Shown one piece after another: positions 1-63,312 of a stretch of 64,000 nt of DNA. The notes under the pieces are model-generated. The model made no database searches and was not told the origin of the DNA. It was given only the letters and a program-made list of their open reading frames with translations. The first letter of the stretch is position 1, and each line of letters begins with the position of its first letter. This DNA is from Romanomermis culicivorax (taxonomy: Eukaryota; Nematoda; Enoplea; Mermithida; Mermithidae): the NCBI GenBank assembly GCA_963922205.1, contig CAWUHX010000062.1, positions 620,001-684,000 of the forward strand, given 5' to 3'. The position numbers and the translations under genes were made by a program.

Positions 1-2
1 AC

Positions 3-3000: not shown

Positions 3001-3032
3001 TGCCTAAAGGTCGCGGATTTCCGCCGAAATGA
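3..3032 (+). CDS. ORF3 C-terminal part of Ty3-type element A (5' truncated by window edge)
   Basis: The frame is open from the first bases of the window to a TGA at 3030-3032, so the true start lies upstream; the first apparent start (33) is only a TTG. The opening residues ([16 protein letters not shown]) align with the segment just after the exonuclease domain in element C (YPHDIVSPAQVKTLAFR) and B2 (FPHNLIGPPVIDHIAR). The order of later blocks is also shared: HAVGAPMSL, a [12 protein letters not shown] block like PHSRAEYDYIL in C, and PYYYF like B2 PHYYF. Counting from base 33, residues ~590-675 are rich in Arg-Ser/Arg-Glu like an RS domain, and residues ~760-880 form a folded-looking block. 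No membrane segment is seen. The frame is free of stops, so this copy may be functional. The exonuclease domain itself is outside the window. Confidence 0.8.
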
Positions 3033-20510: not shown

Positions 20511-20516
20511 AATATT

Positions 20517-21590
20517 GTGCAAACTGATCCTAAACCTGATAACTCTGCTAATGCAACTCTGTTTTCTCCTGGTATTATTGGTTGGGATGTGGAAGACATC
20601 TCAGGGAATGATCCTTTGATTGCATACCCAGCAATATGCCATATAAGTAAGTGCACTCCTGTTTCCGATATTTATGTAAAAAGCTATCTGCCTACTAATG
20701 CCTTCCTCATTCCTATCAAAATTGGATGCATTACTGCAAATGCTCTCATTGATACAGGTGCTCAGTATTCTGTGTTATTGTCTGGTCTTGTTAGATGAGC
20801 CTTTGAGAAGATTGATACCCCTCTACCTGTCTGTGGCCACATACCTTTCGCAGATGGAGCAGTGGTAAAGACCCACCATCCAGTTCTATTTACTATGGAA
20901 TCTGATTTCAGTCAACATCTTGTCAAATGTGTCATTCTCTATTATGACACCAGTGCATTATTCGAACTGATTTTCTGGCTCATCCTGATGTCCAAGCCAT
21001 TCTGAACTTCAAGCAAGGATACCTTGAGATAGCCAATAAATGGGAACCCCTTACCATTATTCCTAGACATCTGCCTAACTCACCTGAAATAATTTCAACT
21101 CTGAAGAGTCTTGAAGGACCTATTCTAGAAGAAATTCTGATTCATGCCCAATCTTCAGACTATTCCATCATCTGAAAGTGATGAGCCAGTCGAAATGATT
21201 GGAGCTGAATCCTCTGATCAACCTGTTCATACCGACACTCCCACAGTTGTTGATCCCAACAATCTAGTTGCCGCTGAACTTGCCGAACCTATTTCTATTG
21301 TTGCTGCTGCTACTGTTAAGACTCAACCTTATTCTCAACATTGGATTTGTGGTGATGTTTTTCCACAAACAGAGGCATCATTCCTGATTTAATAGTTCAA
21401 CCTGCATCTAACACTTCTAACAGTGAAGAATTTCCCATAGAAACTTCAGTGATTAATATCTGTAATTGAACTTGTCCACTTCTGTTTGTCAATAATTCTG
21501 GTAACTGTCTTAAGCTTAGCACTAACCAAGTAGTTGCTGTTGTAAAGCACTCTCTGGAAAAGTGGCACACCAGCTCACAAGATACTCTTT
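20517..21590 (+). pseudogene. protease and linker of element B2 pol
   Basis: ITANALIDTGAQYSVLLSGL (~20720-20790) is a retropepsin active-site block with D-T-G intact, collinear with KALVDTGAQCSVMSS of element C. The frame then breaks. Fragments such as VKCVILYYDT and FLAHPDVQAILNFKQG match the post-active-site region of C (LIIGTDFLAHPDV). The downstream linker is open only in pieces (21144-21392). Confidence 0.75.
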
Positions 21591-21593
21591 CAG

Positions 21594-22577
21594 GTGGCTG
21601 CATCAGAGCGAAGTCCAGCTGATCACCAATCTGCTGCATTAGATCACTCTCTGCCTAATACTTCTGATTCTCAAAAACTTCACTTAGCTCTCAAAAAAAT
21701 GACTCAGAATACCTCTGTCTCACCCACTCAGAAGGCTAAAGCCATTAAAATATGCAAACAGTATCGTGATGTCTTTAGCTTACCTGGTGATCCTCCTACT
21801 TTTACTCATGAGCTCATGGTAAACATCAATACTGGCGATGCACAACCCATCACTAGACACTACTATCTTTCTCCCATTGAACAACACCCTGTAGTCAGGT
21901 CTCACATTCAAGAAATGCTCAATAAGGACTTCATTAAACATTCACAGTCCCCTTGGGCTGCTCCTCTTTTTCTAGTGAAGAAGAAGGATGGTTGTTGGCA
22001 CCTGGTAGTCAACTATCGGAGCATTGACAAAGTTACACCTTGTGATCATTTTCCAATTCCTAGAATTGATGATTACCTAGATGTAATGGGAAATGCAAAG
22101 TTTTTCACAGCATTAGATCTGAAAGCAGGCTACTGGCAAGTACCTCTTGACTCTGAATCTCGTGACATAACTACTTTCATCTGCCAAGAAGGACTTTTTC
22201 CGTTAGGGGTTTTACCCTATGGCTTGAAAAATGCTCCTGCAGAATTTCAATGCCTGATGGAAAGAATTCTTCATCCTTATATCTGGAAAATCTGCTTTCT
22301 TTACATAGATGACATTATCGTTTTCTCCGAAACTTTCAAAGAACATCTCCAACACATTCAGATGATTTTCAAGGCGCTCAGAGACACTAATCTCACTCTT
22401 AGAATTGATAAGTCTGAATTTCTACCTTTTAAGGTCAAATTTCTTGGTCACCTTCTGAATTCTGATGGCATCTCTGCTGATCTGGATAAAGTAATAGCTA
22501 TTTTTGGAGTACCAAAACGCAGATGCATAGCTTTCTTGGCCTTGTACAATAGTGCAAGAGTTTTATTCCTAAACTAG
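21594..22577 (+). pseudogene. reverse transcriptase of element B2 (RNase H lost)
   Basis: A 327-aa open frame covers the RT fingers and palm: SPWAAPLFLVKKKDG, FFTALDLKAGYWQVPL, PYGLKNAPAEFQ and the catalytic CFLYIDDIIVFSE, then HLQHIQMIFKAL and KFLGHLLNSDGIS. The residues needed for polymerisation look intact and the frame matches element C closely. It ends where the RT connection region should run on into RNase H. The RNase H block seen in C (TDASGTALGAVLYQ) is missing, apparently deleted before ~22770. Hence this is a fragment of a dead element despite the open frame. Confidence 0.85.
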
Positions 22578-22778
22578 CAACCTTACCTGCACCACTCTAT
22601 GAGCTGCTCTGAAAAGGGGCGACCTGCACTGTTACTGATCTTCAAAGACTGAGTTAGATGAACCTATCATAGGCGCTGTTACTCACTCTATGGCTAAGAC
22701 CTCTGACACTCCTCAAACTACTGTGTCCAATCGTCAATCTTGGTTAAAAGATGATTTCCAGTTACCAGCGGTAGAACA

Positions 22779-23205
22779 CATACATGTAACAGAGCCCCGA
22801 GGTCTGGGAGGGGGGGTTTGGCCACTTTTTTTGGGCTGGGGGTCAGTAATTCCCAAAATTTCTGGGGGAGGGGTCTCTGAAGGAAAAAAATTCGATTTTT
22901 TCACAACAAAAAGGCCTGAAAAACAGTTCAAAAATAGTGATTTTTGTCTAAAAAATTATAAAAAATGTATTTATGGCGCGAAGCACTGAGAAAATTCATG
23001 TTTTTGACCAGTTTTTGTTCAGAAATTGACATTTTTCATCAAAAAATTGACATTTTTCCGACCAAAAGTATGGGGGTCCCTAGGGGTACCCTATGGCTTG
23101 CCATAAGATTGGAAAATCCTGGGGGGGTGTCGCCCAAGGGCTAGTCATATGGTGAATGATTTCTGGGGGGGGTTCCCATAGCACTCCCCCCTAATTACAT
23201 GTATG
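22779..23205 (+). mobile_element. 427-bp MITE family II, copy 2, inserted in element B2 pol
   Basis: Terminal inverted repeats CATACATGTAA / TTACATGTATG. The flanks GTAGAACA (22771-22778) and ATAGAACA (23206-23213) match at 7 of 8 positions, which fits an 8-bp target duplication of the hAT type. It contains GC homopolymer runs and no ORF, and aligns with 7732-8153. It separates RT from integrase, so it inserted after B2. Confidence 0.85.
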
Positions 23206-24462
23206 ATAGAACAACCCTCTATTGCATCACCATGTGGAATTACTCAACTTCAAAAGGAAGATCATGTTTTAATTGAAATTATAACTGCTCTTAACTCTGA
23301 TAATCCTCTCAAGTCTCCTACCTGCTTTTTCATTGAAGATGGTATACTCTACCAACAGTCTAAGGCAGCGAGACAGCTCCTTGTCACTGCAGCACTTGTT
23401 GATATGGTTCTTCACCAATTCCATGGTGCAAAAATTATGAACCATCAAGGGCACAATTTTACTCTTGATGCCATAAAGCTTCACTTCTGGTGGCCCAGAA
23501 TGGAAAATGCTGTGCGAACTTGGATTAAAATTTGTAGAATCTGTCAGTTAACTACTGCTAAACTGTCAATCTATAGACCTCTGATTCATATTAAGCCAAC
23601 ATATCCTTTCGAGATTGTCACAACTGATATTGTTAATATTTCCCCTGCAGGTGATCATAGACCTTACATCATTGTTTTCCAAGACTATTTCACTAAGTGG
23701 GTAAGCACTCACCTGATCCCTGATTAGAAGGCCTCTACTATAGTAGAATGTTTTGTCAACAATGTCATTCTGCAACTTGGAACTCCTCAATTTCTACTTT
23801 CTGATCAATGTAGCTGTTTCACCTCAAAACTCATGCAAGATGTTTGTGAGTTACTGAAGATCAGGAAAGTTCAAACTACTGCCTATCACCCTCAGTGCTA
23901 GGGGATGGTTGAGAGATTCTATCAAACATTAATTTCTCAACTTAAATGGTATACCATGGAAGATTCCGATAATTGGGAAGGATACCTACCCTACACAGTC
24001 TTCGCATATAATGCAACTCCTCACTCTGCTACCCGCCATTCTCCATTCAAATTGTTGAGTGGTCCCAAGCCTCGAATCACTTTTGATTACAAATGTGCGA
24101 AACATCTGACTTCACCTTTAAATTATGATGCTTACCAGCATATTCTGGCCCAATCTTATCTGAATCTGTATAAGAAAGTTTGCAAAAACCTGGATAAAGC
24201 AGCAACCTCCAGTAAGTCCTATTATGATAAGAAAGCCAAACAGTGCGAGATCGCCACAAACGACCTCATGTTACTGGTTAACTCTAAGAAAGGCAACAAG
24301 ATACAGCCCGACTACATCAGCGGGTACATTGTTACTGACACCTCTACTCTTGAGCATAATGTTGTCACTATTGATGCACTAAATACTCCTGGTAGACCTC
24401 AAATAGTATCCATTTCTCACCTGAAAAATTATATTCACAATCTGCTAGGAAAACCTTTATAG
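23206..24462 (+). pseudogene. integrase of element B2
   Basis: The zinc-binding HHCC motif is seen in [13 protein letters not shown] and KICRICQ (~23410-23550). The catalytic core keeps all three acidic residues: VTTDIVN, LLSDQCSCF and GMVERFYQTL. It is broken by TAG stops at ~23725 and ~23898. The C-terminal part (23905-24462) is open and includes NATPHSATRHSPFKLL and a terminal segment collinear with element C. Integrases of this type join the element cDNA to the host genome. Confidence 0.85.
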
Positions 24463-25182: not shown

Positions 25183-28060
25183 AGTGGCATCAACACCCGG
25201 GAGTGGTATGCCACTTGGGCCGACACTTCAGGACATCAAAATGACATTTCATTTTTTGGGGATGGTAAGTTGCATGCACTTTTATAAGCTTTATGTGCTT
25301 GTCCTTTTTTATCTTGATCTTTCTGGTTTGAGTTTCCCACTGTGCTTATTTTCCAACTGCCCAAGTGCCAAAAGACTGGCAGTGGTCAGTTTCTGCTGAT
25401 CTGATCAATCATTATGCCTTGGCCTAGCTTGCGCACATTCTGATGCTGAGGCTGGAGACTGCTTCTGAAGTTAATCTCAAGTTAACTTTGGTTGTGAAGG
25501 TCATGCTCAAGTCCATAATCGAGAAAGCCATCTGCCTAATCAAACTTCATTTTTTAAATATTAAAATTTTCAAAATACAAAATTTTTCAAATTTCTCAAA
25601 TTCCAGACTTACAACTTTTCAAATTTATCACATAAAACACAATCGATTTTCCAAATTTCGAAACATTCTCAGCATCATATTTTCAAATAACTTTACATCA
25701 AATTTTCAAAAATTCCTTTTTTTATTTCCTACTATTTTTGGCCAGAACTTTTTTTTCTAACTTCCACTTCTGTTTAAGTATCTCGGAGTACCTGCTCTCA
25801 GTCATCTTATCTTAAGAAATGTGTATAATTTATTTTAAATGTTTTTAGAGTTAAACATCAAGTGGCTCATGAGAGTAAGAGAGCTGGAGCAGTGGTACAT
25901 GTCACTGTTCCAGCGTCTACCTAGTTTCATTTCCTCACCAGAGTTTGTACTCCCAGGCCATCTGCATTCAGCATTGTCCACAGTGCAGATGCCCAACTTA
26001 AGTGGATACACTCTGATCAACTTTGACACTGAATCGATTTACACATTGGACTTGTCAAAGTTTTCACATTCTTCTTTTATACCGTTTAATTCTGATACCA
26101 AGACTGTACCAAGGTACGTGCAATTCTCCTATCCAGATGGCAGGGCTCTTGTTTTCCAAGCTCTTTTAGCCACTGAGGAAGATTGGACTGCCTTCTTTGA
26201 GCATTTCGATAACACCCATACCATTGTCCCGACATTCAATGTTGACAATGACAGGTGTGCACTCTATACTCTGGTAGGTCCTTCTTTTGGCACTGCAAGT
26301 CAAAATGCTGAACCAATGGTCATCCCCAAGATACCGATGGTTGACATTTTCCACTGCATGAAACAGATTGAGAAAACTCCTGATCTTTTGGAGAAAGCTT
26401 ATCCGCTTTTTCCCAGAATGCTGTACTCTCAAAGCATGCATAACCTGCATGTGGGCTTGGGACATGGTTCCTTTTAACCACAACTTTTCTAAAAACCCCA
26501 TGTATTATGCCACACCATCCCAACACAAACTGTCCAGTGATAAGCTAATATATGCAGGACTAGATGCTTTCTATCCCATTCTGATGAACCTCCCCTTAGG
26601 TCACTATAGTTTTTTCGATGAGATCTTTTGTGCAGCTCAAATCTTTCCTCACAACCTAATTGGTCCTCCCGTTATCGACCATATCGCTAGGGTTCTTATT
26701 TGTCAGGGACTGTTAAGGACTCTCTGTTACCTATGGGGCTTAACATTCCTAATAACCCCATGCTGTTGATAGAATTCCTACTGGCAGTGATGCTTGATGA
26801 GGCATTGTCAGTCCTCTCCTATCTCTTTATGGAAACTATTCAGCCCACCCACTGTCAGCCAATGTGCCTGGCAACAATGACCAATGGTGTGGTGCCTTTA
26901 GAAACTGCTCAACATTCAACTTTTCCTCCTCCTTTTCCAAAACTTTCTTGGATTCAATGCAGGAGTCTTCGCACAGCTCAAGCTAATGACCCTCAGTCAT
27001 TACTGGACTATCCTGTGATTCTCAATAATCCTTTTGATCTACAAACAGCTGTAGCCACAGCTATGCGGTCAGGAACAGCTCCTGACTTGCACTATGCTTT
27101 GGGTGCTCCTATGTCTGTTTAATATCTGACACAGGTTTTCCACAGCCTGGTTAATGATTCTATTTCCACGTCTGATTTATTTCCTTGCAAATCTGAGCCC
27201 TTCGCTGACTGCATGGCTGTGGATCAACTGAGGCGGAGCAATCAGTACAGTAAAGGTTACCAGTACCCTTCTCAATCTTATCTTCAGTATCTGACTCCAA
27301 ATAATGTCCATGCCTTGAATCTTTTGACTGTTAGTCTTCCACTACCAGCTCGATTGACCTCTCCATGCTCTCTGGAGGAATACAATGATGTCAAAAAGAC
27401 AATTTGTAATGCCATCAGTGACATGGATGATGAACTTAGGAAGTTTTACACACTCCAATGTTGGTTGGACCTGAATGGTGACCCTAAGGACATCCTTACT
27501 TGCTATAAGAAAACTTTGCCCTGAGTCCAACCTAAATTCAGGTGCGAATCTATTACTCATATATCAAATCATTTCGCCCTATGACCTGTTCTAGTCTCCT
27601 CAGCTAGAATGGACATAAAGGAATCATATTTTCTACACCACGACTCTAGCTATGAAAGTAATCCTCACTATTACTTTTCCTGGTTGTTGAAACGTGTATG
27701 TCTATTACTGAATTACCAAGTTTTAATGCCACCATCTGCTATCCTTAATTTCAACATTTACAAATCTCGCACTTCTGCAGATACTCAACTTTCAATGCAA
27801 ACCAAATCTGATGCTGAGGTTACACTCACATCGGAAGGGTCCACAGTTGCTGTTATCATGACTGATACAGATACTCAATCTCAAGTACTCAGAGTCATCG
27901 TTGATACACCATCTTGCCCTCTAACAGAGGCAGAGATGTGACTCTCTAATTTAACTATTAATTTGAACCCGACTGAAGAACTACAGACTGAGCCACAACT
28001 CCGGTCCACATCCCCTGGTATGTCAGTTGTTGACCATATATCTAGTCTACAATAACTTTT
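25183..28060 (+). pseudogene. ORF3 of element B2: spliced DEDDy exonuclease-like protein (decayed)
   Basis: Exon 1 (25183-25264) reads TREWYATWADTSG..HQNDISFFGD and ends GAT-G|GTAAGT. The intron runs 25265-25848 and ends TTTTTAG. Exon 2 starts G|AG with LNIKWLMRVRELEQWY. Both exons align with element C, with the intron at the same codon and in the same phase. The exonuclease residues are kept: INFDTESI (D-x-E), FNVDNDR (D) and IYAGLDAFY (Y-x3-D). A frameshift near 26455 and stops near 27120, 27522 and 27938 break it. Downstream blocks HYALGAPMS and NPHYYFSW match element A. No clear start codon remains in exon 1; a TGA lies in frame at 25147. The tail is lost into repeats at ~28060. Confidence 0.8.
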
Positions 28061-47110: not shown

Positions 47111-47119
47111 TGGGATTTT

Positions 47120-49280: not shown

Positions 49281-49885
49281 TGTTGGGGATGTGCTTACGG
49301 CAGTAGCAATCCCACATCTATGCAAAATTGGTGAATCGACAAAGTTACGATTCCACCAAAAAGGAAGAAAACATTCATTCGTGTTTACCTTCGCAATTTT
49401 GGTGTGTTTCGGGCGAGTCGCGTCCGTTAGAAATTGTATTGTACTGTTTCGCCTAGTAAAGGCAAACGTCGACAGCCCCACACCATATTTGCATATTATT
49501 ATTATAATAATTATTTATTATTTACATTATTATTACTCGCGCATTGAGCGGTTGGAGGGAGTCGCCTTACACGGGAGCCAAGCCAAGGTGAAGCCCCAGT
49601 CCTTTTGGATATTATTGAAGTGAGTTCTGTGTATTTGTGTGAACCTTTAGGAGGCATCTGGGGAGACCCTGAGTGCCCTTCGATTGCAAGAGTTAGAGTT
49701 TCCAGTTACTTATTAGTGACTGAAGGTTGTGTTTATTTCTGCTTAAGGACTGTTGCACTGTGTTCAGTTGATTGCTAATAGGAAGCTCCTTTGAGTGACC
49801 TACAGTAGTCGATTGAGTACAAGCCGATAGGACTTGAGTCATATTGCTGACATCTTCGGATCTAAGCAGAGAAGTAAACATAACA
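49281..49885 (+). repeat. 5' LTR of element C (605 bp)
   Basis: TGTTGGGG...CATAACA. It differs from the 3' LTR by about ten substitutions and small changes in an ATT microsatellite. It contains a conserved GTGAGTTC (49620-49627), also present in the solo LTR at 36979-38350, which has the form of a splice donor. Confidence 0.92.
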
Positions 49886-49979: not shown

Positions 49980-52900
49980 ATGTCCAAAAATACTGAGGAT
50001 TTAGCCTCTGGTACGACTTTACCGAGGACTCCGCCTGGTGTAAGGCATGATGAGTCGGATAAATCTTTCCCACTGCCCGTGGTATCTAATACTACGAGCA
50101 AGCGGAAAGGCTCCGACTCAAGTGCCATAAGCCAGCGGGCTGAGGTAAAATTGGACCCAGTAAGCGCTCCCACTTCCGTAGCGCCTATAATGGCCAGCAA
50201 TAATATCAATAATATGGCCACGGCAAAGGAACTATTGACTGCCGAAGATAGAGACGCTCAATTATTAGCGCCTATTGATAGAAGGCCGAAATTGGCCGAG
50301 GATCATATTGATCCGTTTGATCAATTTAGAGAGGAACGTTTTCGACGACCTCGACAGCGATTTGATACGTATCATCGCGAATACGTTAACGAAAATATGG
50401 ATAATATTATTCGGGACGATTACCGTCATGATCCACTGGACGATTTACCTTTTGAAATGAGTCAAAAGGACGACGAAATTCGACGACTAAACGTCAAAAT
50501 TGATAAAATGGCCGATTCGATGGTCGGAGTCCAAGGACTATTGGAAAGATTCGTCCTGGATCAAAAGGAAAGGGATATCCGAGTGAGTATGACTACAGAC
50601 AGACCATTGCAAACTCAGGATATGTGTAGAACTTTGCCAACGACGTCTGCAACCTGTATTGCCAATGACCAAAGGTTACGGCAGATGGAAGCAGATAAGT
50701 CAGAGCAAAAGTTCACAGTCAAACCTGCTGTGAAATCAAAGGTTTCTACGGAAAAACGGGTAACTGAACCGCTTGCTGTTCGAGAACAAGCAAGTGATAT
50801 AGTTGCTCAATTTTTCCAAGAGGCTGATGAGGAAGCAGCAGGTAGTCATAAGGAAAGCAAACATACTACGTCGAAGCACAAACGATCCAAAAAGTCCACA
50901 CGAGGAAATTCATCAGATTCTGATGACTCCTCAGTGGATGGATTGGAGCCTACTGTGTCAGATATAGTGAAGGCTGTAAAGCCAAAGCTACTCCTCGATG
51001 ACATGACTGAGACACAAGTTCTCAGCTTCCTAAATGATTTAGAGGCAGAATTTACTTCAGAAACTACTGATAAAATGAAGCTGGCTGCCTTACGAGCGCT
51101 TTCTAAGGGTGTACCGAAAGCTACTGCCAAAAGGTTCAAAAGTTACGAAAAAGCCCGAAGAAAGTTGCTCAAAGTGCAAGCTCCAGATTCAAATGTCGGT
51201 ATGCAAACAAGGGAGCTGATGAACATAAAGCAGGAATTTGATGAAGCTCCAGTGAAATTCCTCAAGAGAATTAGTGTGCTAGTAGATAGATTGTATCCTA
51301 ATAAGACCGAAGAGTTCAGAGATCGTTTCATAATTGATACCTTTTTGTATAAAGCATCTGAAGAGTATCAGATGGAGTTGCTAGATCAAAGAGAAAAGTA
51401 TGAAACATGGCACGATTTAGCAGAGGATGTGCACAAGATTGATAAGCGGAACACAGCTGCTTATAAAAAGAGAGGAACTCCGGAGTCTCCAATTGTGATA
51501 AATGAGGTGACGATGGGTGAAGGGCAAGCTGAAGTGGCTTATGTCGGTAGAAATAAATTTGGCAATGCCCCACAAAGGCAGTTTCAAAATAAAGCTATGC
51601 GACAGCAAGCAAGGAGAGAGAAGCAAGCCCCGATCCTAGTGTCAGAAAAGAAGGATTCCGATACTTCTATAGAAGAGAATAACTCACAGGGGACTCAAAT
51701 GGCTACTACTCCCCAAAAGGGAAAAGAGCCTGAGGAACCTAGCAGTGATTCTGTTCTAGCAAAGTTATCACAGGAGATTGCGAAGTTGGCTCAGTGTTAT
51801 CAGGAGATAAGCCAAAAAACTGATGCTAAATTGAATGAAATTTCTGCCAAAGTTAATAAGGGCAAACCCCAAAAACCTGGTGGAAACGAGTTCAGGAAAC
51901 CATATTGTCGATACCATAGAAATAATTCTCATGACACGTCCGAATGTAAAACCCTTCAATGGAAAAATGCACAAGGACGTAATTGGGATAATCGATATGG
52001 TGGAAACAGAGGTTTCAGGCAACAGTTTGGAGGCTTTAGAGGAGGATATGTTGGCGGGAGCAGTAGAGGTGCTCATGCCGTAGGTTATTATGGTGATACC
52101 ATGGATTATGATACTTATCAACGATTCATGGATTACCAGAATAGATTGCGGAATGAGCAACTCTATATGGCACCACAACTGCCAGCCCCTAGCCAACAGC
52201 TGATGATCACAGCTCCCCCTCAAGGTCAGGTTCAAATCAGTAACCCTAGCCCAAGTGTGCAAGCCATTTCCAGTAGTCAACCATCCACGTCCAGTCAGAC
52301 AGAGTTGGGATCTGCTGGAGGTGTTAATAGCATTGCCACTACGGGTCAAGGTGTTAGTGAGATGAAATGGCCTGGAGTATTGAAGTGTGCCATGATGAAA
52401 GAAGATTATTCAAAAGTTACGAAAGCGTTCAAGCATGGGATAATTCCTAATCAGGAGGAACGATTAAGGTTTTCTAAATTCCCTCGAACTCTCCCATTTC
52501 ACATTAATGTGACCGTATGTAATACTAACACCAAGGCTCTAGTGGATACTGGTGCTCAGTGTTCGGTGATGTCTTCATGGTTTCTTAAGGAAGCTTTTGA
52601 TGAAGAATATACCGGATATCCTGAGATACTAAAAGTCACTGTTGCTGATGGTGCAGTAGTACATGCACATGGTTACATACAATTCAAAATGCATTGTGAA
52701 TTTGGAGTTTTCTTGGTGAAAGCCATAATCATTCCTAATGCGGAGGAAAATCTCATAATTGGAACGGATTTCTTAGCACATCCGGATGTTGGAGCAATGA
52801 TAGATTTTGGTAAAGGTATCATGAAACTTAATGGAGTTGAGAAAGCTATAAGTGTTGTACCTAAAGATCACGCGAGTCATATACAAGCTATTGATTGTAT

Positions 52901-55900
52901 AGGGGAAGCACCTATAGTACATTCAAGTCCTGAAGAGGATCAATACCCCAGGATCTGCCAATTAGGTATAGTGGTTCCAGTGGTATCATGTACGAAAGTA
53001 TACGTACCACACGGAACTGATGTGCTTATTAAGGCAAGGTTATGGGAACGATCGTCTAAAACAGATCTCGATTGTTTGGTCATAGATGGAAATAAAGAAG
53101 AAAAGAAATTCAGAGTTGATAGCACACTGGTTGATGGTAAACGGGAAGACTTTGTTCTGATGATTTCGAATAATACGGGTTCCGGATGCCAATTGCAACC
53201 TAACCAGGTTGTAGGCTACTGTGACTCAATATTACAAGAAAATTCAGGAGTATCAGATGTACAAAGTACGAGTTGTGGGATATTTAGTGTTGAAGATAAT
53301 TTTAATGCCACTCCCAGAATGTCCGTGCATGATGCATTGGCATTTAGGGAAGCGCTATATAAAATGATCTCCAAGGCTGATATCAATGAGGAATTAAAGG
53401 AAACAGCTGTAGCAAAACTGTCTAAATACAGGGATGTTTTCAGCTTACCCAATGATCCCTTAACTACAACACCGTATCTTACGTGCAAAATTGATACTGG
53501 TAATGCAATGCCAGTGGCAAAACATTATTACAGAGCTCCCATTAACCAAAGATCAGGGATTAGAGCTCAAGTCCAAGACATGTTAGATAAAGGAGTTATT
53601 GAACCCAGCCGGTCACCGTGGGCTGCTCCACTTTTCCTAGTTGGGAAAAAGGACGGTTCCACGAGACCAGTTGTGGATTTCAGAGGTATAAATGAGGTTA
53701 CTAAGGACGATAGGTACCCTATACCTAGAATGGATGATTATTTGGATTGTCTAGGTAATGCCAAATTTTATACCACATTGGATCTAAAGTCTGGATATTG
53801 GCAAGTCCCACTTGAGGAGAGTAGCAAGGAGAAAACTGCATTTATATGTCAGGAAGGCCTATATCAGTTCAAAGTTATGCCTTTCGGACTTAAAAATGCA
53901 CCTGCAGAGTTTCAGAGAATGATGGAGAGAGTGTTGCATGGTCTAGTCTGGAGAATCTGCCTAGTGTATATTGATGATATCATTGTGTTCTCCAAAACTT
54001 ATGAGGAACATTTGGAGAATTTAGAGTTGGTCTTGCAAGCTCTTCGGAAAGCAAAGCTAACACTTAAACCGGAGAAGTGCGAATTTCTTCCAAAAAGTGT
54101 TCATTTTCTTGGACACATACTGGACGAAAATGGAATCTCACCAGATCCGAAAAAAGTGAAGGCTATTACGGAATTCGAATTTCCCAATAGCGTTAAGCGT
54201 ATGCAACGATTTCTGGGGATACTGCAATGGTGTAAGAAATTTATCCCAAACCTTGCAAATCTTGCAGAACCGTTGTATAAGCTTACCGCTACGGGAAAGA
54301 AGAAGTTCCAAGCAACAGAGGAACATCGCCAAGCGTTTGAAAAACTGAAAAAAGCACTCACCTCAGTGCCATTTCTACGGTATCCTGTTTTGGATGGAAC
54401 TGCGGAGTTCATTCTCCAAACAGATGCCAGTGGAACCGCACTGGGAGCAGTACTTTATCAGAAGACTAAAGATGACCAATGGGTAATAGCCTATAGCAGC
54501 CGAATCCTTAAGGAAGACGAGAGGAAGTGGTGTGCTACAGAGCGAGAATGCCTAGCGGTTGTCTATGGTCTTAAAGTTTACCGGCACTATTTGTTTGGAC
54601 AAAAAGTATTGATCAAAACTGATCATAAACCTCTTTTATCTATGAAAGTTAATACTCAAACTAATGATAAGTTGAAAAGATGGTATTCCATTATAAATCA
54701 ATTTAATCATAGGTTGGAGTATGTGCCCGGTAGACAAAACGCAATGGCTGATTTTCTCTCAAGAAAAGATGAACCCGAAGACGCTAAGGACAAAAACCCA
54801 CCAAAATGGGAATATGTCTTCAAAATTCAATTTCGTAATTTTGGAACTCAAACCAATGAAGTTGAAACCCAAATATTGGTACAACAATTTCAGAGGATGA
54901 GGGACGAAGAAGTTGAAAGTAGAGACGAAAAAATTGTCCCCGAGCAGACCAAGGAATTGACGGATATCCAGGAATTGACGGTAGGAAATGACAACATTGC
55001 ACCAACTACCAAAGATGTATTGCAGAGCAGAAATGAAATGCAGAAGCTTACGGTAGTTGATGCAGTCACAACTAGAAGACAAGCAAAACTTCAGGATCAG
55101 AGTGCACAAAATCAAGAACAGGGTACATCTGTACCAAATGATCCTGAAAACATTGCTTGGCTTTTCCCGAATAGAGAGAAGGAATTTGAAGAGGTGAAGG
55201 AAGGAGAGAATGAAGAAAAGGATGATGATAAGATCGATTATCCAATTGATCTAAATGTTATCGCTCAATTGCAAAAAGAAGACACTAATCTTACCCCAAT
55301 TTGGGAAAGATTAGGGGTCAAAAGCACTACGAAGTATCATAGTGGATTCTATGAGGATAACGGAGTTCTTTATAGGGAAACTGAGGGACGTGGCCATGAT
55401 CAGATCGTGGTCCCGAATTCCCTCAGAGACAGCATACTTCACCAATATCACGGAGCCGTTATAATGACACACCAAGGGTTCAAAAGAACTCTGGGTATTG
55501 TCAAACAGCGGTTCTGGTGGCCTGGCATTGAAAAAGATGTCAGAAATTGGTTGAAGTTTTGTCCTGTCTGCCAAGTGGCTACTCCCGGTAAAAGCTCCAT
55601 ATCCCCATTGATACCCATTATACCGGAGGGTCCCTTCGATATTGTGTCTGTGGACATAGTAGGGATTGCTCCCTTGAGGGAACGTCGCCCATATGTCATT
55701 GTCTTTCAGGATTATTTCACTAAATGGGTTGAAGCTATATTGATTCCTGATCAGACGGCTGAAACCATAGTGGATGCATTCTTAGAGCATGTGATATTTA
55801 GGCACGGTACCCCAAGAAAACTTCTTAGTGATAACGGATCTGGATTTAATTCAGATCTTATGAAAGCAGTCTGTAAACTGTTAGAGTGCAGAAAAATTTT

Positions 55901-56588
55901 CACAACGGCATACCACCCACAGGGTAATGGTATGGTTGAGAGATTTAACCAAACTCTAATAAAGCAGCTGCGAAAAGTTGCAATTGAGGATAACAATAAA
56001 TGGCCAAGGTACCTCAGTGCAGTGGTATTTGCATATAATGCCACACCTCACGCAGCAACGAAATGCTCGCCATTTTCACTGCTGCGGGGGCATGAAGCTA
56101 ATTTTGGTATCAATTTCACTGCTGCTCTTAGAATAGTCATGCCTAATGACTATGAGGCTTACAAGTATGTTTTGGCTACCCATCTTACAAATTTGTACGA
56201 AAGTATTGCCGAAAACATACAAAAAGCCGCTAAGGACAGCAAGAAATATTTTGATAACAAAATTAAAACTTCTGGTTTTAAAAATCAAGATTGGGTTCTG
56301 TTGAAAGTAGACAGACAGAAAAAATTGGGGTTACCTTGGCAAGGACCATATATCATCATCGATGATAAAAGATTGAAAGACAATGTGCTCACAATAGCGC
56401 ATTGGAACAACCCGCTTAAAAAGCAGGTCGTATCGGCAAGTAGGCTAAAACACTTTCGATACGAAGGTACCAGATGGTCTCGACACGAAATGTCGCAGGT
56501 CTTCCGGGATACTCCAGTTAACGCAACTGGAAATCCCGCCGAAACCGAAGATCATCCGGTCGTTATTTCGGTGTCTAAAAATTTTTAG
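49980..56588 (+). CDS. Gag-Pol polyprotein of element C
   Basis: ATG at 49980 (AAAATGTCC) gives 2202 aa. The frame is open further back only to a GTG inside the probable primer site. Gag has a charged N-terminus, a capsid-like region (~400-550) and a C-x2-H-x4-H-x4-C zinc knuckle (643-656). Protease D-T-G is at 856-858. RT has LDLKSGYWQVPL and the catalytic YIDD (1330-1333). RNase H starts at TDASGTALGA (first Asp 1482). Integrase has the HHCC motif (His from 1821, Cys 1861/1864) and the core D1892, D1951, E1987, i.e. D-D-35-E. No frameshift separates Gag from Pol, so particle and enzymes come from one polyprotein or from processing. All key residues are present. It replicates the element through RNA and inserts the cDNA into the genome. 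Confidence 0.95.
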   Translation: MSKNTEDLASGTTLPRTPPGVRHDESDKSFPLPVVSNTTSKRKGSDSSAISQRAEVKLDPVSAPTSVAPIMASNNINNMATAKELLTAEDRDAQLLAPIDRRPKLAEDHIDPFDQFREERFRRPRQRFDTYHREYVNENMDNIIRDDYRHDPLDDLPFEMSQKDDEIRRLNVKIDKMADSMVGVQGLLERFVLDQKERDIRVSMTTDRPLQTQDMCRTLPTTSATCIANDQRLRQMEADKSEQKFTVKPAVKSKVSTEKRVTEPLAVREQASDIVAQFFQEADEEAAGSHKESKHTTSKHKRSKKSTRGNSSDSDDSSVDGLEPTVSDIVKAVKPKLLLDDMTETQVLSFLNDLEAEFTSETTDKMKLAALRALSKGVPKATAKRFKSYEKARRKLLKVQAPDSNVGMQTRELMNIKQEFDEAPVKFLKRISVLVDRLYPNKTEEFRDRFIIDTFLYKASEEYQMELLDQREKYETWHDLAEDVHKIDKRNTAAYKKRGTPESPIVINEVTMGEGQAEVAYVGRNKFGNAPQRQFQNKAMRQQARREKQAPILVSEKKDSDTSIEENNSQGTQMATTPQKGKEPEEPSSDSVLAKLSQEIAKLAQCYQEISQKTDAKLNEISAKVNKGKPQKPGGNEFRKPYCRYHRNNSHDTSECKTLQWKNAQGRNWDNRYGGNRGFRQQFGGFRGGYVGGSSRGAHAVGYYGDTMDYDTYQRFMDYQNRLRNEQLYMAPQLPAPSQQLMITAPPQGQVQISNPSPSVQAISSSQPSTSSQTELGSAGGVNSIATTGQGVSEMKWPGVLKCAMMKEDYSKVTKAFKHGIIPNQEERLRFSKFPRTLPFHINVTVCNTNTKALVDTGAQCSVMSSWFLKEAFDEEYTGYPEILKVTVADGAVVHAHGYIQFKMHCEFGVFLVKAIIIPNAEENLIIGTDFLAHPDVGAMIDFGKGIMKLNGVEKAISVVPKDHASHIQAIDCIGEAPIVHSSPEEDQYPRICQLGIVVPVVSCTKVYVPHGTDVLIKARLWERSSKTDLDCLVIDGNKEEKKFRVDSTLVDGKREDFVLMISNNTGSGCQLQPNQVVGYCDSILQENSGVSDVQSTSCGIFSVEDNFNATPRMSVHDALAFREALYKMISKADINEELKETAVAKLSKYRDVFSLPNDPLTTTPYLTCKIDTGNAMPVAKHYYRAPINQRSGIRAQVQDMLDKGVIEPSRSPWAAPLFLVGKKDGSTRPVVDFRGINEVTKDDRYPIPRMDDYLDCLGNAKFYTTLDLKSGYWQVPLEESSKEKTAFICQEGLYQFKVMPFGLKNAPAEFQRMMERVLHGLVWRICLVYIDDIIVFSKTYEEHLENLELVLQALRKAKLTLKPEKCEFLPKSVHFLGHILDENGISPDPKKVKAITEFEFPNSVKRMQRFLGILQWCKKFIPNLANLAEPLYKLTATGKKKFQATEEHRQAFEKLKKALTSVPFLRYPVLDGTAEFILQTDASGTALGAVLYQKTKDDQWVIAYSSRILKEDERKWCATERECLAVVYGLKVYRHYLFGQKVLIKTDHKPLLSMKVNTQTNDKLKRWYSIINQFNHRLEYVPGRQNAMADFLSRKDEPEDAKDKNPPKWEYVFKIQFRNFGTQTNEVETQILVQQFQRMRDEEVESRDEKIVPEQTKELTDIQELTVGNDNIAPTTKDVLQSRNEMQKLTVVDAVTTRRQAKLQDQSAQNQEQGTSVPNDPENIAWLFPNREKEFEEVKEGENEEKDDDKIDYPIDLNVIAQLQKEDTNLTPIWERLGVKSTTKYHSGFYEDNGVLYRETEGRGHDQIVVPNSLRDSILHQYHGAVIMTHQGFKRTLGIVKQRFWWPGIEKDVRNWLKFCPVCQVATPGKSSISPLIPIIPEGPFDIVSVDIVGIAPLRERRPYVIVFQDYFTKWVEAILIPDQTAETIVDAFLEHVIFRHGTPRKLLSDNGSGFNSDLMKAVCKLLECRKIFTTAYHPQGNGMVERFNQTLIKQLRKVAIEDNNKWPRYLSAVVFAYNATPHAATKCSPFSLLRGHEANFGINFTAALRIVMPNDYEAYKYVLATHLTNLYESIAENIQKAAKDSKKYFDNKIKTSGFKNQDWVLLKVDRQKKLGLPWQGPYIIIDDKRLKDNVLTIAHWNNPLKKQVVSASRLKHFRYEGTRWSRHEMSQVFRDTPVNATGNPAETEDHPVVISVSKNF

Positions 56589-57001
56589 CGGAAAATGCCG
56601 TATACGTGTATTTTATGTGAATAAAATTTTTATTTTCTGTGTTATTTAACCGATTTATATTCGTTTAATACCTTTCTTAAATTTTGGGTAGCGAAGGGTC
56701 AAATTTTCAGAATAATATTGTTAATTTGTACACCCGACGCTAAAATTTTTGGATTACATTTTGGGAGGTTTACGACCAATTTTCATTTTCAATTTCAAAA
56801 GTCGTGTTTTTCTTGTGCTCCGCGTCGCACAAAATTTTCGGAACAAATTTTTTCGTCCAGCCCAAGGACCCGATAAAATTATTTTCGGTAATTTCGTATA
56901 TTGTATCGATATTGAAGTAACGATAAGTGTTCTTTAACATTTTGTTTACTTTAGAAGATACAACGCGGAATTTAAGAAAAAAATTTTAAAAAATTTTTAA
57001 A
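56589..57001 (+). other. pol-ORF3 spacer of element C
   Basis: AT-rich 413 bp. It has an AATAAA at 56620-56625 and a good splice acceptor TTTACTTTAG ending at 56954, 47 bp before the ORF3 start. The acceptor could join ORF3 to the 5' leader. Confidence 0.5.
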
Positions 57002-60000
57002 ATGTCGAAATTAGGCGTTGCGCCTTTCGCGCGAAATTATTGCGCACACGCCGACCACGTTAAGGCGGGCCAACCGCAAGGCCGCCAAAACAATCGTTAT
57101 TTTTTGACCGACGGTAAGTTTTTATTTAATTATTTCTTGGTATGTGGGACGAATTCGCCCATTTAGGTGTCTTAGGAATGATTTCTTCACGCTCAATTTT
57201 CTGAATGGGCCAACCAAGGGGAAAACGAGTTCGAAGAAAAGTTTCTAAAAATGTTAGGATAGGTGAAAAGAAAAAACCTAATGGATTTACGGCCCTAAAA
57301 AGCCAAAGTCTAATGGTTTTTACCTTGGATCCGATTCCGAAGCATTTATTTTTGGTTTTATTAAAGCCCCTGGTTTACTAAATTTATTTCTTGGATTAAT
57401 TAAAACCTTAATTGGTTATTTATTCATTACTTAATTTTGGTACCGAGGCGTGAAGTTATCGCTAGGGTAAGTGGTAAATTGACGGCGGCCGACGTCGAGA
57501 AGCGAAAGGTGGTGCAGATGTGAGGTTCCTGAAAAATTGGTGTAGCATTTGCGTTAACCACTGGGCCTGCTTACTTTATGACTTTGACACCTAACCTCAC
57601 TAATTAATTTATTTTTCCCCACGCTAAATCTTTTTCCTAATTTGGTGCCGGTCAAAGTTGATTATTTATTTGGTGGTGGTGGCCTAATGCCTGATTTATA
57701 AAGGGTCAAGGGGCAAATTCTTTTTGATTTTTAGACTACAACATCAAGCGTCTGGTCCGCGTCGGAGAAATCGAACAATGGTTCGCCGGCGCGATGGGTT
57801 ATTGGCCGCAGCGACCAATGGAACCCGAACGGGTTCACGGCGGCAACGTCGAACCAATCCTGAAGCAATTGGCCACAAGCCAGTTTCGGGGGCTAGGCGT
57901 TGTCGGATTTGACGTCGAAAAGGTCAAGAAGACCGAGGTATGTATTATACCTTATAAGGTAGCGATCCAGAACCCGGAAGGGAAAGAGTTCGCTAGGCTG
58001 GTGTCATTTGCACACATAGATGGTTCCAGCTTTGTGATCGACCTTACAACATTGAAGCCGCAGGAATGGGATCTTTTGATTTCATTCCTGGCATCGGTGG
58101 ATCGTTTCTTGGTCGGTTTCAAAGTTGTGGACGATCTGGTTGCAATTTTGAACGTCTACGGATCCGGGTCAGGGGCCTCGGCTCATGATAAGACGAAAAT
58201 TATACAGGCCCGTATACTCCAAGGATTTGGAAAATATTGGGACTGTGAAATTTGCGTCAGATTGATGACGGGGCCCATGGCCAATCACGCTCGTGATTTA
58301 GGATTGTGTCCTGAAAACCTTGGGTTAAAAGGACTTTTCACCGAATTTTACTTGGCTGATGTCGGCAAATACCAATGCGACTTCGGTGACAAAAAGATTC
58401 GAGAAAAGTTCTTGGCCCCCAAGATTCAAGACACAGAAATTGTGTATGCTGGCCTGGACGCCTATTATTCAATTGCCGTATTTTTAGGGTTCTTTCACTA
58501 CGGGTTTTGCGGTGAATTGAGTGGGGTTACGGCAACGTACCCCCATGATATTGTATCGCCGGCCCAAGTGAAGACCTTGGCCTTCCGCTTTTATACGGTG
58601 TACTCTCAAGACCTAACGGGGTTCGAGGATCGAAACTTCGTAGATGAGAAGGACATCGTAAAGAGGCAGTTGTTCAAGGTCTACCATATGATGCGGCAAG
58701 AGGTAATGGCCAGGTGGGCTACACAATTTCATAATGACTTGCCAGAATATTCGTGTCCTGCGGATATTAAAAATCCCGCTAAAGCTACGGACCACACTTT
58801 ACTGTCTGGGGTTTATCCCAAGGCGCTAAAAGCTGGTCCAAGCAAAAAGAAAACAAATCAGTGGGAAGACGTAAGTGATCCGGAGGACATGGATACAATG
58901 GAACAACAAGTCAATAGGACAAACGAGGTGATAAACCGACTGCATACAGAAATGTTGCAAGGGGTTTCATTTTTCAAATTGACGGATCCTGTGGATGTTG
59001 TATGGTATATCACAGCCGGTCTTGCCATGAATAAGACTCCTCGACAGGACTGGTCGAAGCAGCTTCAATCGTTTCAACTCGGAACGGACTGCTACGAACC
59101 AGTGGAAATCGACACCGGTATGGCTAAGTACGACAGGGATCACTGGATGGCGGACTTGAGGAATTACGAGCATGTCATGGACTCAACAAAGTTTCCTGCG
59201 TTGGAAAAGGCATGCAACCTAATTCCTCTACCATTCTTTGTTTTCTGGCCTCATAGCCGTGCCGAGTACGATTACATACTGAGGGAATTATTGAATTATA
59301 ATTTCCTCAAATCCTACTCGAAGGAGGATGCAGAGTTAATAAAGAAGATGGCATGGAAGACCGATGACAGGGTTTTACAGAATTACGACATAGTAGCATC
59401 CTTACCGCCAACGGAACCTGAACATGCTGTAAAAGGCAAAAGGGTTACGACCTGGCAAAATAGGTTTGGTTTTATGCCTATTCGGTTGCGCTTGCGCAAC
59501 AAAATAGGTTCTCCAATTTCGACGGAAAAAGCAAAGGACAATATTACCCATAACAAGGATTATTGGGCCAACTGCTTTTTCTACGTCAGATTCTACTATG
59601 CGGAATTCGGTAGTAAAACCCCGTCACTGCGATATGGCCTATCACCAGACACGCCTACTCTTCAGACGGGTCAGATCAGATGTATACCGGCTGATTATCC
59701 GTTGTATACTATTGAATTTCCTGAAAAGTGTATTCACCGGAGGCCTCTGCCGTCGGAATTACCTATGGTTACCTATTCATACGGTAATCAAACCAAACAA
59801 TCCGATTTCAGGACGAAATCTGATATACTAGACCCTGATAATGAACCCACAGTTCAAACGGGTCTAGTGGACGAGGACGTCACGGAATTGGAAAGTGAGG
59901 ATGAGGATAATTCCGCACTCCTGGGAGAGGAAAGCTGCAAGGAGGTTGACGACGAAGACGCATTATTGTATATTTCGATCGCCGACCCCCAAGTAGCCGA

Positions 60001-61798
60001 ATCTGCGGTGACAGCACCTTCTGTCACGCAGTTGCAACCGCAACCACAAGTTGTGACGCAGCTGCAGACGGAAATGCTGCCGCCGCCGCCTGGCTTACCT
60101 ACGCTACAAGTCACACAAACATCTATGGATGCGAGTCAGTACTTGTCTAGCGTAGAAAGTCAAGCGCAATCGGAAGAAATTCCGATTACCCAGGATGAGC
60201 AGAACGTCTATGATCAGGCATATATTAATGAGTACATGGATGCCGAAGGTGGAAAGAAGAAGGAGGAAGAGCAGACGGCAGGGACACCTAGCCATACTGT
60301 GGTGGAAACACCACAAGAGCTAGCGGCCCGGCTGGCTGAAGAGGATAAGGAAATTCAAGTATTAGCCTTGACCTGGGACAAAGAAGGTGTTCCCGGATAC
60401 TATACTGCTGAGGCGATAAAAAATATGAAAATAAAAGGACTAAATGATAGGCAAATTTTCGTTAACTTGAAAAAGAAACGAAAAACAAAAGCCCGTCAGG
60501 AGAAGAAAAAGGTAGAAAAGGCAATTGCGCAGCCTGCAAAGGTTACGCAGCCGAAACCCGCCAAAACTTCTGCTCCGGCTTCAGCAACGGTATCCGTGAC
60601 CACCGTATCTTCAACTACTCCTGTGTCGCAGACTGTCTCTACAGGTACTTTATCGATGGCAACGAGTCAGTCCACGCAATTTGTGTCGCAGGCTATGGAC
60701 ACCTCTGCTTCCGGACGGCGTCAGCCTAAGGTGCAGGGAGCTCCTAGCAAGCCACAGGTTGCAGGACAAAAAGTTCAAATCTTTACACCAGGAAAGATAA
60801 AGCCGTTAACTCTGGTTACTGTTGACCCAAATCAACAAACACCAGAAATGACGGTGGAGTTATTCCGGGATGTATTGTTGGATTTTTGGCAAGTCACCAA
60901 AGATAAAAGTAGAGCCAGAGGTCCAATTTCTTTTGCTACACCGGAATTGGCTAATTATTTCTGCGACGAGCAGTTTGAAGATCCAGAGATTTGGCTGATG
61001 GTCAATAAAGCGGTCAGGACTATATACAAACTGTATCAGCCACAGTTTGATGTCCAAGGTGGATTTTTATACGACTCGCGAAATATTCCAGAGCCACTAT
61101 GGGATAGGATCATTCGTGAGATTGTCCTTGAATGGCTCACGGAATATCGAGCGAGTGTCGTATTTGCAGCTGTCAGATATTTGTGTATGATGATATTCCT
61201 TATGCTTGACTATGCACCACTTACGGCTGAGCAGATCGGTAAACGATCGGTCTCAGCCAAAGTGTTTGCAAACATCATGCTGTTACAGGAATATCGGAGT
61301 GCCACTGCTTCGGATGTTTTCAAGACTGCCTATCGCTTGGTGATGTATAATTACAGTCAACAAGCGGCGGAGATGGATGTCAAAAGGTCAGGTAGCCCAA
61401 GTCCTCCGACTACTGTTAAATTTAGCAAAGTTCAGAACGATGCGGGACAGACCTTTCGGGCACCCGGACCCGCAAGCAGTCAAACTGGTGGTCAAGGAGC
61501 CACGGTTGGTATAGCCAACCAGGTCTTCGCTGGCCCCAGTTCTGGCACTGGGCAAGCCTCCAGAACCGTTCCGAAACAACAGCAACCTATACAGCATCTA
61601 CAGGGTGCTAGGGGAGCTCGTGGAGGACGGGGAAGGGGTGCCCAACCAGGCCAGTTTCATTTTAACAATCCGAACAGGGGCAGAGCTGGTTACGTTGGTG
61701 GCCGAGGTATATACCGAGGACAACACCCTCGTGGTGCATTCCGAGGTCGTGGAGGTCATCAACAAGGCCAGCAGCAAGGCGGCGGGCAGCAACAATAA
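57002..61798 (+). CDS. ORF3 of element C: DEDDy 3'-5' exonuclease-like protein with RGG tail (2 exons)
   Basis: Exon 1 57002-57113 and exon 2 57735-61798 (intron 57114-57734, GTAAGT..TTTTTAG, phase 1) encode 1391 aa. Exonuclease motifs of the RNase D/WRN/Egalitarian type are VVGFDVEKV (Asp97, Glu99), VGFKVVDDL (Asp170/171) and VYAGLDAYYSI (Tyr275, Asp279). They form a complete DEDDy set for two-metal 3'-5' nucleolysis. Then come conserved blocks shared with A and B2, an acidic and Pro/Gln-rich linker (~700-1050), a helical-looking block (~1075-1196) and a Gly-Arg-rich RGG tail (~1326-1391) typical of RNA binding. No signal peptide or membrane segment, so it is not an envelope protein. The exon 1 start is chosen because B2 shows the same exon and intron phase. 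Substrate unknown. Confidence 0.87.
57114..57734 (+). other. phase-1 intron of ORF3 (621 bp)
   Basis: Donor G|GTAAGT and acceptor TTTTTAG|AC. The same position and phase occur in B2 (25265-25848, 584 bp). The 5' end of this intron is the only interruption between a conserved exon 1 peptide and exon 2. Confidence 0.8.
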
Positions 61799-62696: not shown

Positions 62697-63312
62697 TGTT
62701 GGGGATGTGCTTACGGCAGTAGCAATCCCACATCTATGCAAAATTGGTGAATCGACAAAGTTACGATTCCACCAAAAAGGAAGAAAACATTATTATTATT
62801 ATTCGTGTTTACCTTCACAATTTTGGTGTGTTTCGGGCGAGTCGCGTCCGTTATAAATTGTATTGTACTGTTTCGCCTAGTAAAGGCCGACGCTGACAGC
62901 CCCACACCATATTTGCATAATATTATTATAATAATTATTTATTATTTATACTATTATTATTACTCGCGCATTGAGCGGTTGGAGGGAGTCGTCTTACACG
63001 GGAGCCAAGCCAAGGTGAAGCCCCAGTCCTTTTGGATATTATTGAAGTGAGTTCTGTGTATTTGTGTGAACCTTTAGGAGGCATCTGGGGAGACCCTGAG
63101 TGCCCTTCGATTGCAAGAGTTAGAGTTTCCAGTTACTTATTAGTGACTGAAGGTTGTGTTTATTTCTGCTTAAGGACTGTTGCACTGTGTTCAGTTGATT
63201 GCTAATAGGAAGCTCCTTTGAGTGACCTACAGTAGTCGATTGAGTACAAGCCGATAGGACTTGAGTTATATTGCTGACATCTTCGGATCTAAGCAGAGAA
63301 GTAAACATAACA
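62697..63312 (+). repeat. 3' LTR of element C (616 bp)
   Basis: TGTTGGGG...CATAACA, with the same ends as the 5' LTR. The extra 11 bp come from an ATT microsatellite expansion (62790-62802) and similar small changes. Confidence 0.92.

What the first reader, a model, noticed from the sequence alone, without database searches (positions are those of the whole stretch)
57002..61798. A Ty3-type LTR retrotransposon lineage with its own DEDDy 3'-5' exonuclease-like protein
Seen: the ORF after pol in element C has D-x-E, D and Y-x3-D motifs in the order and context of RNase D/WRN/Egalitarian-type exonucleases. The B2 copy keeps all of them despite decay, and the element A copy is collinear downstream of the domain. 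Known: Ty3/Gypsy elements may add env, chromodomains or dUTPase. I know of no described lineage with a separate DEDDy exonuclease protein. Inference: it is a captured host exonuclease maintained by selection, because three diverged copies share it.
Basis: partly seen in the sequence, partly recalled or inferred. Interest (0 to 1): 0.9.

Follow-up and report, generated by a model that had tools for sequence, protein, structure and literature searches.

The report
Retrotransposons carrying a DEDDy exonuclease gene
Several related jumping genes in a mosquito-killing roundworm each carry an extra gene whose front part looks like an RNA- or DNA-trimming enzyme; a similar extra gene was described in rotifer jumping genes in 2017, so the idea is not new, but this is a separate case in nematodes that natural selection has kept.

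Summary
Element C (LTRs 49281-49885 / 62697-63312) is a Ty3-type LTR retrotransposon with one gag-pol ORF and, inside the LTRs, a 1391-aa ORF3 with one inferred intron. Pfam, NCBIfam and PDB sequence searches do not recognise ORF3 as an exonuclease. Profile-profile comparison of its N-terminal domain with RNase D/NrnC/mut-7 gives 93-95% probability (score 55-61; best of 200 shuffles 26.5, best of 28 decoys 16.8), all five DEDDy catalytic residues in register. Structure prediction failed (pLDDT 35, 38), so the fold is unproven. The host matches the Romanomermis culicivorax v2 assembly. ORF3 occurs in at least four Ty3 lineages; LTRs are 96-100% identical in the three where they were found. Domain and RT identities rank broadly alike, ORF3 is under purifying selection (pN/pS 0.19 in C, 0.11 in D; RT 0.13), and a splice acceptor sits at the same codon in all four. 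The claim that no such lineage is described is wrong: bdelloid rotifer Juno/Vesta LTR elements carry RNase D-like DEDDy ORF3s (Rodriguez et al. 2017). This is a new nematode variant: a long, RS/RGG-tailed protein. Host capture was not tested.

The parts
49281..49885 (+). element C 5' LTR (TGTTGG...AACA)
   Evidence: 96.4% identical to 62697-63312; K2P 1.7% over 605 aligned sites, 11 gap columns
49980..56588 (+). element C gag-pol, one uninterrupted ORF (open from 49884; first ATG 49980): protease, RT, RNase H, H2C2, integrase in Ty3 order
   Evidence: RT best matches Ty3 RT in PDB
56953..56954 (+). candidate 3' splice acceptor (TTTACTTTAG) just upstream of the ORF3 ATG
   Evidence: sequence inspection; AG present in 8 of 8 C loci; no transcript evidence
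57002..57113 (+). ORF3 exon 1 (37 codons + 1 base), MSKLGV...RYFLTD
   Evidence: only ATG exon with a phase-1 GTRAG donor here; element A has a matching exon ending RFFFAD; exon and donor intact in 8 of 8 C loci, the window's own included; UniRef R. culicivorax protein P0124 has the same exon joined to ORF3
57114..57734 (+). inferred intron, GTAAGT...TTTTTAG
   Evidence: acceptor at the same codon in lineages A, B, C and D; TTTTTAG in 8 of 8 and 19 of 20 C loci, the twentieth not covering the site
57735..61798 (+). ORF3 exon 2 (main ORF; spliced protein 1391 aa)
   Evidence: at least 124 genomic copies of its first 323 codons scored
57878..58510 (+). DEDDy 3'-5' exonuclease-like domain; catalytic codons D 57911, E 57917, D 58133, Y 58445, D 58457 (D 58241 also invariant in A5)
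   Evidence: alignment A5; hhalign to RNase D/NrnC/mut-7 with residues in register
61604..61783 (+). RG-rich C-terminal tail of ORF3 (31 of 60 residues R or G)
62697..63312 (+). element C 3' LTR
19142..24432 (+). element B gag-pol, decayed
   Evidence: tblastn fragments
25839..26688 (+). element B (B2) ORF3 domain, two frames (25839-26333; 26413-26688)
3..3032 (+). element A ORF3, downstream part (domain lies just before the window, in L010 from 8214), with an RS-rich stretch
3381..3968 (+). element A 3' LTR, 99.8% identical to L010 706-1293

Best explanation
A clade of Ty3 LTR retrotransposons in Romanomermis culicivorax carries, after gag-pol, an ORF3 that is most likely made from spliced RNA. 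Its N-terminal domain is a diverged but catalytically equipped DEDDy 3'-5' exonuclease of the RNase D / mut-7 / EXD2 type. Shown here: position inside the LTRs, profile-level homology with all five catalytic residues in register, purifying selection, broad concordance of domain and RT divergence across four lineages, and a conserved splice acceptor. Inferred: splicing itself, and that the domain is an active exonuclease. The RS- or RGG-rich stretches near the C-terminus would hold the protein on RNA, probably in the nucleus. There it would trim 3' ends of RNA to the element's benefit, either processing element transcripts or removing small/antisense RNAs that silence it. Likelihoods: DEDDy domain about 0.93, active enzyme about 0.7, RNA as main substrate about 0.6.
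For: hhalign of the nine-row family alignment against seven DEDDy chains: probability 93%, score 55.1; 200 column shuffles max 26.5, mean 13.7. C, A and D each alone score 37-38 against maxima of 18-22 in 60 shuffles each. C/A/D together score 61.5 against 16.8 for the best of 28 decoy profiles. D61/E63, D135 and Y239/D243 pair with RNase D D28/E30, D85 and Y151/D155. pN/pS: ORF3 domain 0.19, middle 0.12, rest 0.17, RT-RNase H 0.13 over 21 C copies; D domain 0.11 over 8 copies. RT identities (A-D 82% highest, B-C 61.5% lowest) and domain identities (A-D 40.5% highest, B-C 22.9% lowest) rank broadly the same. Splice acceptor at the same codon in A, B, C and D and in the 19 of 20 further C loci that cover it. 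LTRs 100% identical in one D copy and 99.8% in A. RS/RGG stretches.
Against: No Pfam, NCBIfam or single-sequence PDB match to an exonuclease. In the PDB profile search the two best of four rows are Psb28 (E 0.004 and 0.006); the exonucleases mut-7 and EXD2 come third and fourth at E 0.28 and 0.84. A single Psb28 segment scores 33.8 in hhalign, more than any of seven single DEDDy chains (15.5-25.4); only the DEDDy profile exceeds it. The decayed B set alone does not beat its shuffles (20.5 vs max 21.4). Both AlphaFold2 models are unusable (pLDDT 34.8 and 38.1). One of 21 C copies has E63K and one has D135N. In B copies the acceptor is not universal: L019 reads TTGAG, L017's printed match lies elsewhere, and L013, L015 and L020 were not located by the motif. 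My exon-1 test found no such exon in B or D. No transcript or activity data.
Confidence: 0.62

Rival explanations
1. ORF3 is a pseudo-exonuclease: the DEDDy fold is kept as an RNA-binding surface and the protein works as a gRNA packaging, export or splicing regulator, as CERV does for Cer1 or as catalytically inactive EXD1/Maelstrom do in piRNA pathways.
For: Same place and inferred spliced expression as Cer1 CERV, which is needed for gRNA export (PMC10309623, abstract and passages); RS/RGG stretches; the domain evolves much faster than RT (28-40% vs 69-82% identity among A, C and D). EXD1 and Maelstrom as inactive DEDD relatives: passage in PMC5408684.
Against: All five catalytic residues are kept in the A, C and D rows of A5 and in 20-21 of 21 C copies at each position; a dead scaffold would be expected to lose some. 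One B copy has F for Y.
Confidence: 0.22
2. ORF3 proofreads reverse transcription (or trims primer/cDNA 3' ends), as nidovirus ExoN does for RNA synthesis, letting 12-14 kb elements keep long genomes.
For: Elements are long (C 14.0 kb by LTR ends; D 14.2 kb and A 12.3 kb); viral ExoN precedent (PMC7968707, start of abstract in search listings).
Against: ORF3 is a separate product, not part of gag-pol, so it would need its own packaging; no mutation-rate data; similar lengths occur in Ty3 elements without an exonuclease (recalled).
Confidence: 0.07
3. The motifs are chance and the domain is unrelated to DEDD exonucleases.
For: No curated family model recognises it; Psb28 outranks exonucleases in one search and single exonuclease chains in hhalign; structure prediction failed.
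Against: Three lineages each score above all their shuffles, and the joint profile is far above 28 decoy profiles with every catalytic residue in register.
Confidence: 0.05

Closest known systems
DEDDy ORF3 of bdelloid rotifer Juno and Vesta LTR retrotransposons (Rodriguez et al. 2017, PMC5408684), shared with Athena/Terminon Penelope-like elements
   Same: Downstream-of-pol ORF3 with an RNase D-like DEDDy exonuclease domain in LTR retrotransposons, in place of env; found by profile-profile comparison.
   Different: Different host phylum. The rotifer motif is reported as changed to DEED, here it is canonical DEDD plus Y. The rotifer Juno and Vesta clades carry a dUTPase; none was found in element C by Pfam. 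Here the main ORF3 is about 1.3-1.6 thousand codons, with an inferred intron and RS/RGG stretches. A profile search of about 5.8 billion proteins, limited to proteins sharing short words with the query, found only four R. culicivorax hits at E up to 1. Direct sequence comparison with rotifer ORF3 was not possible.
CERV of Cer1 (C. elegans Ty3-related element; PMC10309623)
   Same: Nematode Ty3-related element, single gag-pol ORF without a stop, downstream ORF expressed from spliced RNA; two UniRef gene models here join gag exons to ORF3.
   Different: CERV is 517 aa, and exonuclease and DEDD do not occur in that paper's main text; ORF3 function is unknown.
mut-7 / EXD2 / RNase D cellular DEDDy exonucleases
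   Same: ExoI, ExoII and ExoIII motifs in register; mut-7 and EXD2 are the only exonucleases among the four PDB rows.
   Different: Sequence below detection by curated models; embedded in an element-borne, much longer protein.

Membership tests
DEDDy 3'-5' exonucleases (RNase D / DNA_pol_A_exo1 type) | ExoI D-x-E, ExoII D, ExoIII Y-x3-D in order and spacing | tested here: met
   residues pair with RNase D D28/E30, D85, Y151/D155 (that these are its catalytic residues is recalled)
DEDDy 3'-5' exonucleases (RNase D / DNA_pol_A_exo1 type) | recognised by Pfam PF01612 model | tested here: not met
   no PF01612 match: C at E up to 1; C and two B2 pieces at E up to 10; none of the 9 members of A5, element A's domain included, at E up to 1
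DEDDy 3'-5' exonucleases (RNase D / DNA_pol_A_exo1 type) | profile-profile homology | tested here: met
   with shuffles and decoys; B alone not
DEDDy 3'-5' exonucleases (RNase D / DNA_pol_A_exo1 type) | RNase H-like DEDD fold | tested here: inconclusive
   AlphaFold2 pLDDT 34.8 and 38.1; no fold search run
DEDDy 3'-5' exonucleases (RNase D / DNA_pol_A_exo1 type) | metal-dependent 3'-5' exonuclease activity | not testable with these tools
   needs an assay
Ty3/Gypsy LTR retrotransposons | LTRs with TG...CA ends and PR-RT-RH-IN order | tested here: met
   no clear target-site duplication was seen at the ends printed
Ty3/Gypsy LTR retrotransposons | RT closest to Ty3 RT among solved structures | tested here: met
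   Ty3 RT E 5.5e-78, next different polyprotein E 4.4e-59
Bdelloid-type DEDDy ORF3 (Juno/Vesta) | common descent with the rotifer ORF3 | not testable with these tools
   rotifer sequences not at hand; none returned
Bdelloid-type DEDDy ORF3 (Juno/Vesta) | DEED variant of the motif reported for rotifers | tested here: not met
   here D, E, D, D plus Y; rotifer wording
Cer1 CERV-like regulator | spliced ORF3 downstream of a single gag-pol ORF | tested here: inconclusive
   position met; splice signals present but no transcript seen
Cer1 CERV-like regulator | sequence or functional homology to CERV | not tested
   CERV sequence not fetched

The most novel reading that the evidence does not exclude
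A whole clade of Ty3 elements encodes its own 3'-5' exonuclease as a counter-silencing weapon. In a nematode reported to lack Piwi/piRNAs and 22G-RNAs, the RS/RGG-bearing DEDDy protein would be tethered to nascent or exported element RNA and destroy the small RNAs or antisense transcripts that would silence it, the reverse of what mut-7 does for the host.
Probability: 0.15. Interest if true: 0.85.

Novelty: new variant of a known kind. Interest (0 to 1): 0.6.

Why it matters
The rotifer authors could not tell whether such exonuclease ORFs help the element: they found no unambiguous correlation with copy number and no significant departure from neutrality (PMC5408684, passages). Here the same kind of gene sits in at least four lineages of a second animal phylum, in many open copies, with purifying selection nearly as strong as on RT. 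That argues the exonuclease is a working part of the life cycle. It gives a large natural set of copies to test what a retrotransposon does with a 3'-5' exonuclease: RNA processing, export, anti-silencing or proofreading.

Tried and rejected
Sequence-only recognition failed: Pfam, NCBIfam, PDB phmmer (only alcohol dehydrogenase and Psb28 rows), and a protein database search with C residues 1-420 (4497 candidates, none at E up to 10). Viral-contig scans with ORF3 and with RT each found 3 pattern matches and no confirmed relative. An RNase D homologue search listed only close enterobacterial proteins and its alignment was not used. Two structure predictions were unusable, so no fold search was run.

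The Psb28 match was followed: it covers about 70 residues (43 columns in hhalign, score 33.8) against 55 for the DEDDy profile. I take it as chance from a library of 177635 sequences, though it beats each single DEDDy chain.

pN/pS values are uncorrected counts pooled over pairs, with stop codons skipped. The 20 C copies fetched were chosen for long open frames, which biases against nonsense and perhaps somewhat against missense. The decayed B set (the 20 best matches to B2, first half of the domain only) gives 0.38, with stops in 14 of 20; this is an old average, not a clean neutral control.

Recent capture of a host exonuclease is not favoured, since domain identity falls broadly in step with RT identity, but host DEDDy genes could not be searched. 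Adjacency to pol by chance is rejected: RT lies in the stretch at the expected distance upstream in 20 of 20 C copies examined, and pol lies upstream in A and in two D copies.

Literature was searched in the held library only. Besides PMC5408684 and reviews that mention it, no listed title or abstract start describes an exonuclease ORF in a nematode LTR element; most listed papers were not opened.
Full report
Anatomy. Element C spans 49281-63312: LTRs of 605 and 616 bp, 96.4% identical (K2P 1.7% over 605 aligned sites), beginning TGTTGG and ending AACA. gag-pol is a single ORF without a stop between gag and pol. Pfam finds protease, RVT_1, RNase H, H2C2 and rve in Ty3 order, and Ty3 RT is the nearest solved relative of the RT. 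ORF3 follows in another frame.

Splicing. Exon 1 (57002-57113) is the only ATG-led exon with a phase-1 GTRAG donor between pol and ORF3, and element A has a matching one ending RFFFAD where C ends RYFLTD; the same test found none in B or D. Exon 1, donor and acceptor are intact in 8 of 8 C loci (one is the window's own), and the acceptor in 19 of 20 further C loci, the twentieth not covering it. The acceptor falls at the same codon in A, B, C and D: 11 of 13 printed rows show TAG or CAG there, one B copy reads TTGAG, one printed match lies elsewhere, and three B loci were not located. UniRef gene models from R. culicivorax join the same exon (P0124), gag exons (P0121, P0123) or an RT exon (P0122) to ORF3; they are predictions and disagree with each other. 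Donors matching the gag junctions exist in element C (CGA|GTGAGT at 50583 and G|GTAGAA at 51547). This resembles Cer1, where cerv mRNA uses gag-frame exons and a downstream ORF (PMC10309623, passages).

Host. The window lies in a 359,112,060-base, 595-contig assembly, the size and scaffold number of R. culicivorax v2 (359.1 Mb, 595; PMC10879605, passages). The only relatives of the domain in the protein database, at E up to 1, are four R. culicivorax proteins.

Copies. The C-domain query gave 124 matches, the 124 scored of 3400 first-look candidates (75-100% identity). The B2 query gave 151 matches from 2651 candidates (150 scored). Of the listed rows, 64 are at 55-100% identity (mostly decayed) and the rest at 42-44%: another family (D), with open frames up to about 1.8 thousand codons. 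Element A lies across the window start. Its domain is in L010, its main ORF3 is 1272 codons, and its LTRs are 99.8% identical. One D copy has 100% identical LTRs; for a second D copy the stretches fetched showed no LTR pair. No LTR pair was found for B. So A and D moved recently and C not long before.

Domain. Nine domain sequences (C, A, four D, three B; partial rows included) align with W113, F130, D135, G144, D171 and others invariant. D-x-E and Y-x3-D are present in every row that covers them, except F for Y in one B copy; one B row starts after ExoI and one ends within ExoIII. hhalign against seven DEDDy chains (five bacterial or ancestral, two mut-7; typed, RNase D) gives probability 93%, with ExoI, ExoII and ExoIII in register. 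Controls: 200 column shuffles (max 26.5 vs 55.1); an earlier five-chain profile gave score 37.1 and probability 50% against 40 shuffles (max 23.9) and a reversed query (17.5); per-lineage tests (C 37.0, A 38.0, D 36.8 above all of 60 shuffles each; B 20.5 not); leave-one-lineage-out 45-60; 21 single-protein decoys (max 20.7); 28 three-sequence decoy profiles from gag-pol and the rest of ORF3 (max 16.8 vs 61.5). Against: curated libraries are silent, Psb28 outranks the exonucleases in the PDB profile search, single exonuclease chains score no better than decoys or only a little better (15.5-25.4), and the structure models failed.

Selection and descent. Over 21 C copies, pooled pN/pS is 0.19 for codons 1-290, 0.12 for 291-640, 0.17 for 641-1355 and 0.13 for RT-RNase H. 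D gives 0.11 over 8 copies; the decayed B set 0.38 over 20. At the catalytic sites 20-21 of 21 C copies keep the residue. Pairwise RT identity orders A-D, B-D, A-B, C-D, A-C, B-C (82 to 61.5%) and domain identity A-D, B-D, A-C, A-B, C-D, B-C (40.5 to 22.9%). This fits one gain before the lineages split; it is a ranking, not a tree test.

Mechanism. ORF3 is RG-rich at its end in C and has RS/RE-rich stretches in A and D. The most hydrophobic 19-residue window scores 1.2 in A (window part) and 1.7 in D, and 2.2 in C, which is borderline for a membrane segment. I read ORF3 as an RNA-bound, probably nuclear protein rather than an env; that is inference. I think it most likely trims RNA 3' ends. 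In R. culicivorax, Piwi, piRNAs and 5'-triphosphate small RNAs were not detected (PMC4323106, passages), so if ORF3 blocks silencing the target would be other small RNAs or antisense RNA; that is speculation.

Known or new. DEDDy ORF3s in LTR retrotransposons were described in bdelloid rotifers in 2017 and noted in reviews. The present case differs in phylum, motif (canonical DEDD versus the reported DEED), protein length, inferred intron and RS/RGG stretches, and shows purifying selection, where the rotifer study reports no significant departure from neutrality. I file it as a new variant of a known kind.

Noticed in passing
9367-10450, 31285-32190, 47074-47980: Tandem arrays of a roughly 98-bp satellite, shared by the three places at about 65-75% identity.
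   Followed up: no
50583 and 51547 with 57734: Automatic R. culicivorax gene models (P0121, P0123) splice gag exons to ORF3, like Cer1 cerv, and P0122 splices an RT exon to it; donors for the two gag junctions exist in element C.
   Followed up: partly
L010 706-9000 and window 1-3968: Element A is a 12.3 kb Ty3 element with 99.8% identical LTRs whose ORF3 has an RS-rich stretch.
   Followed up: partly
15324-17437: A further decayed gag-pol fragment between elements A and B, with no ORF3 match detected beside it.
   Followed up: no
38001-40000: Strong T bias (AT skew -0.41, GC 28%) with imperfect internal repeats at 38357-39503.
   Followed up: no
37929-38333: A stretch about 75% identical to part of the element C LTR (49452-49868), possibly an old solo LTR.
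   Followed up: no
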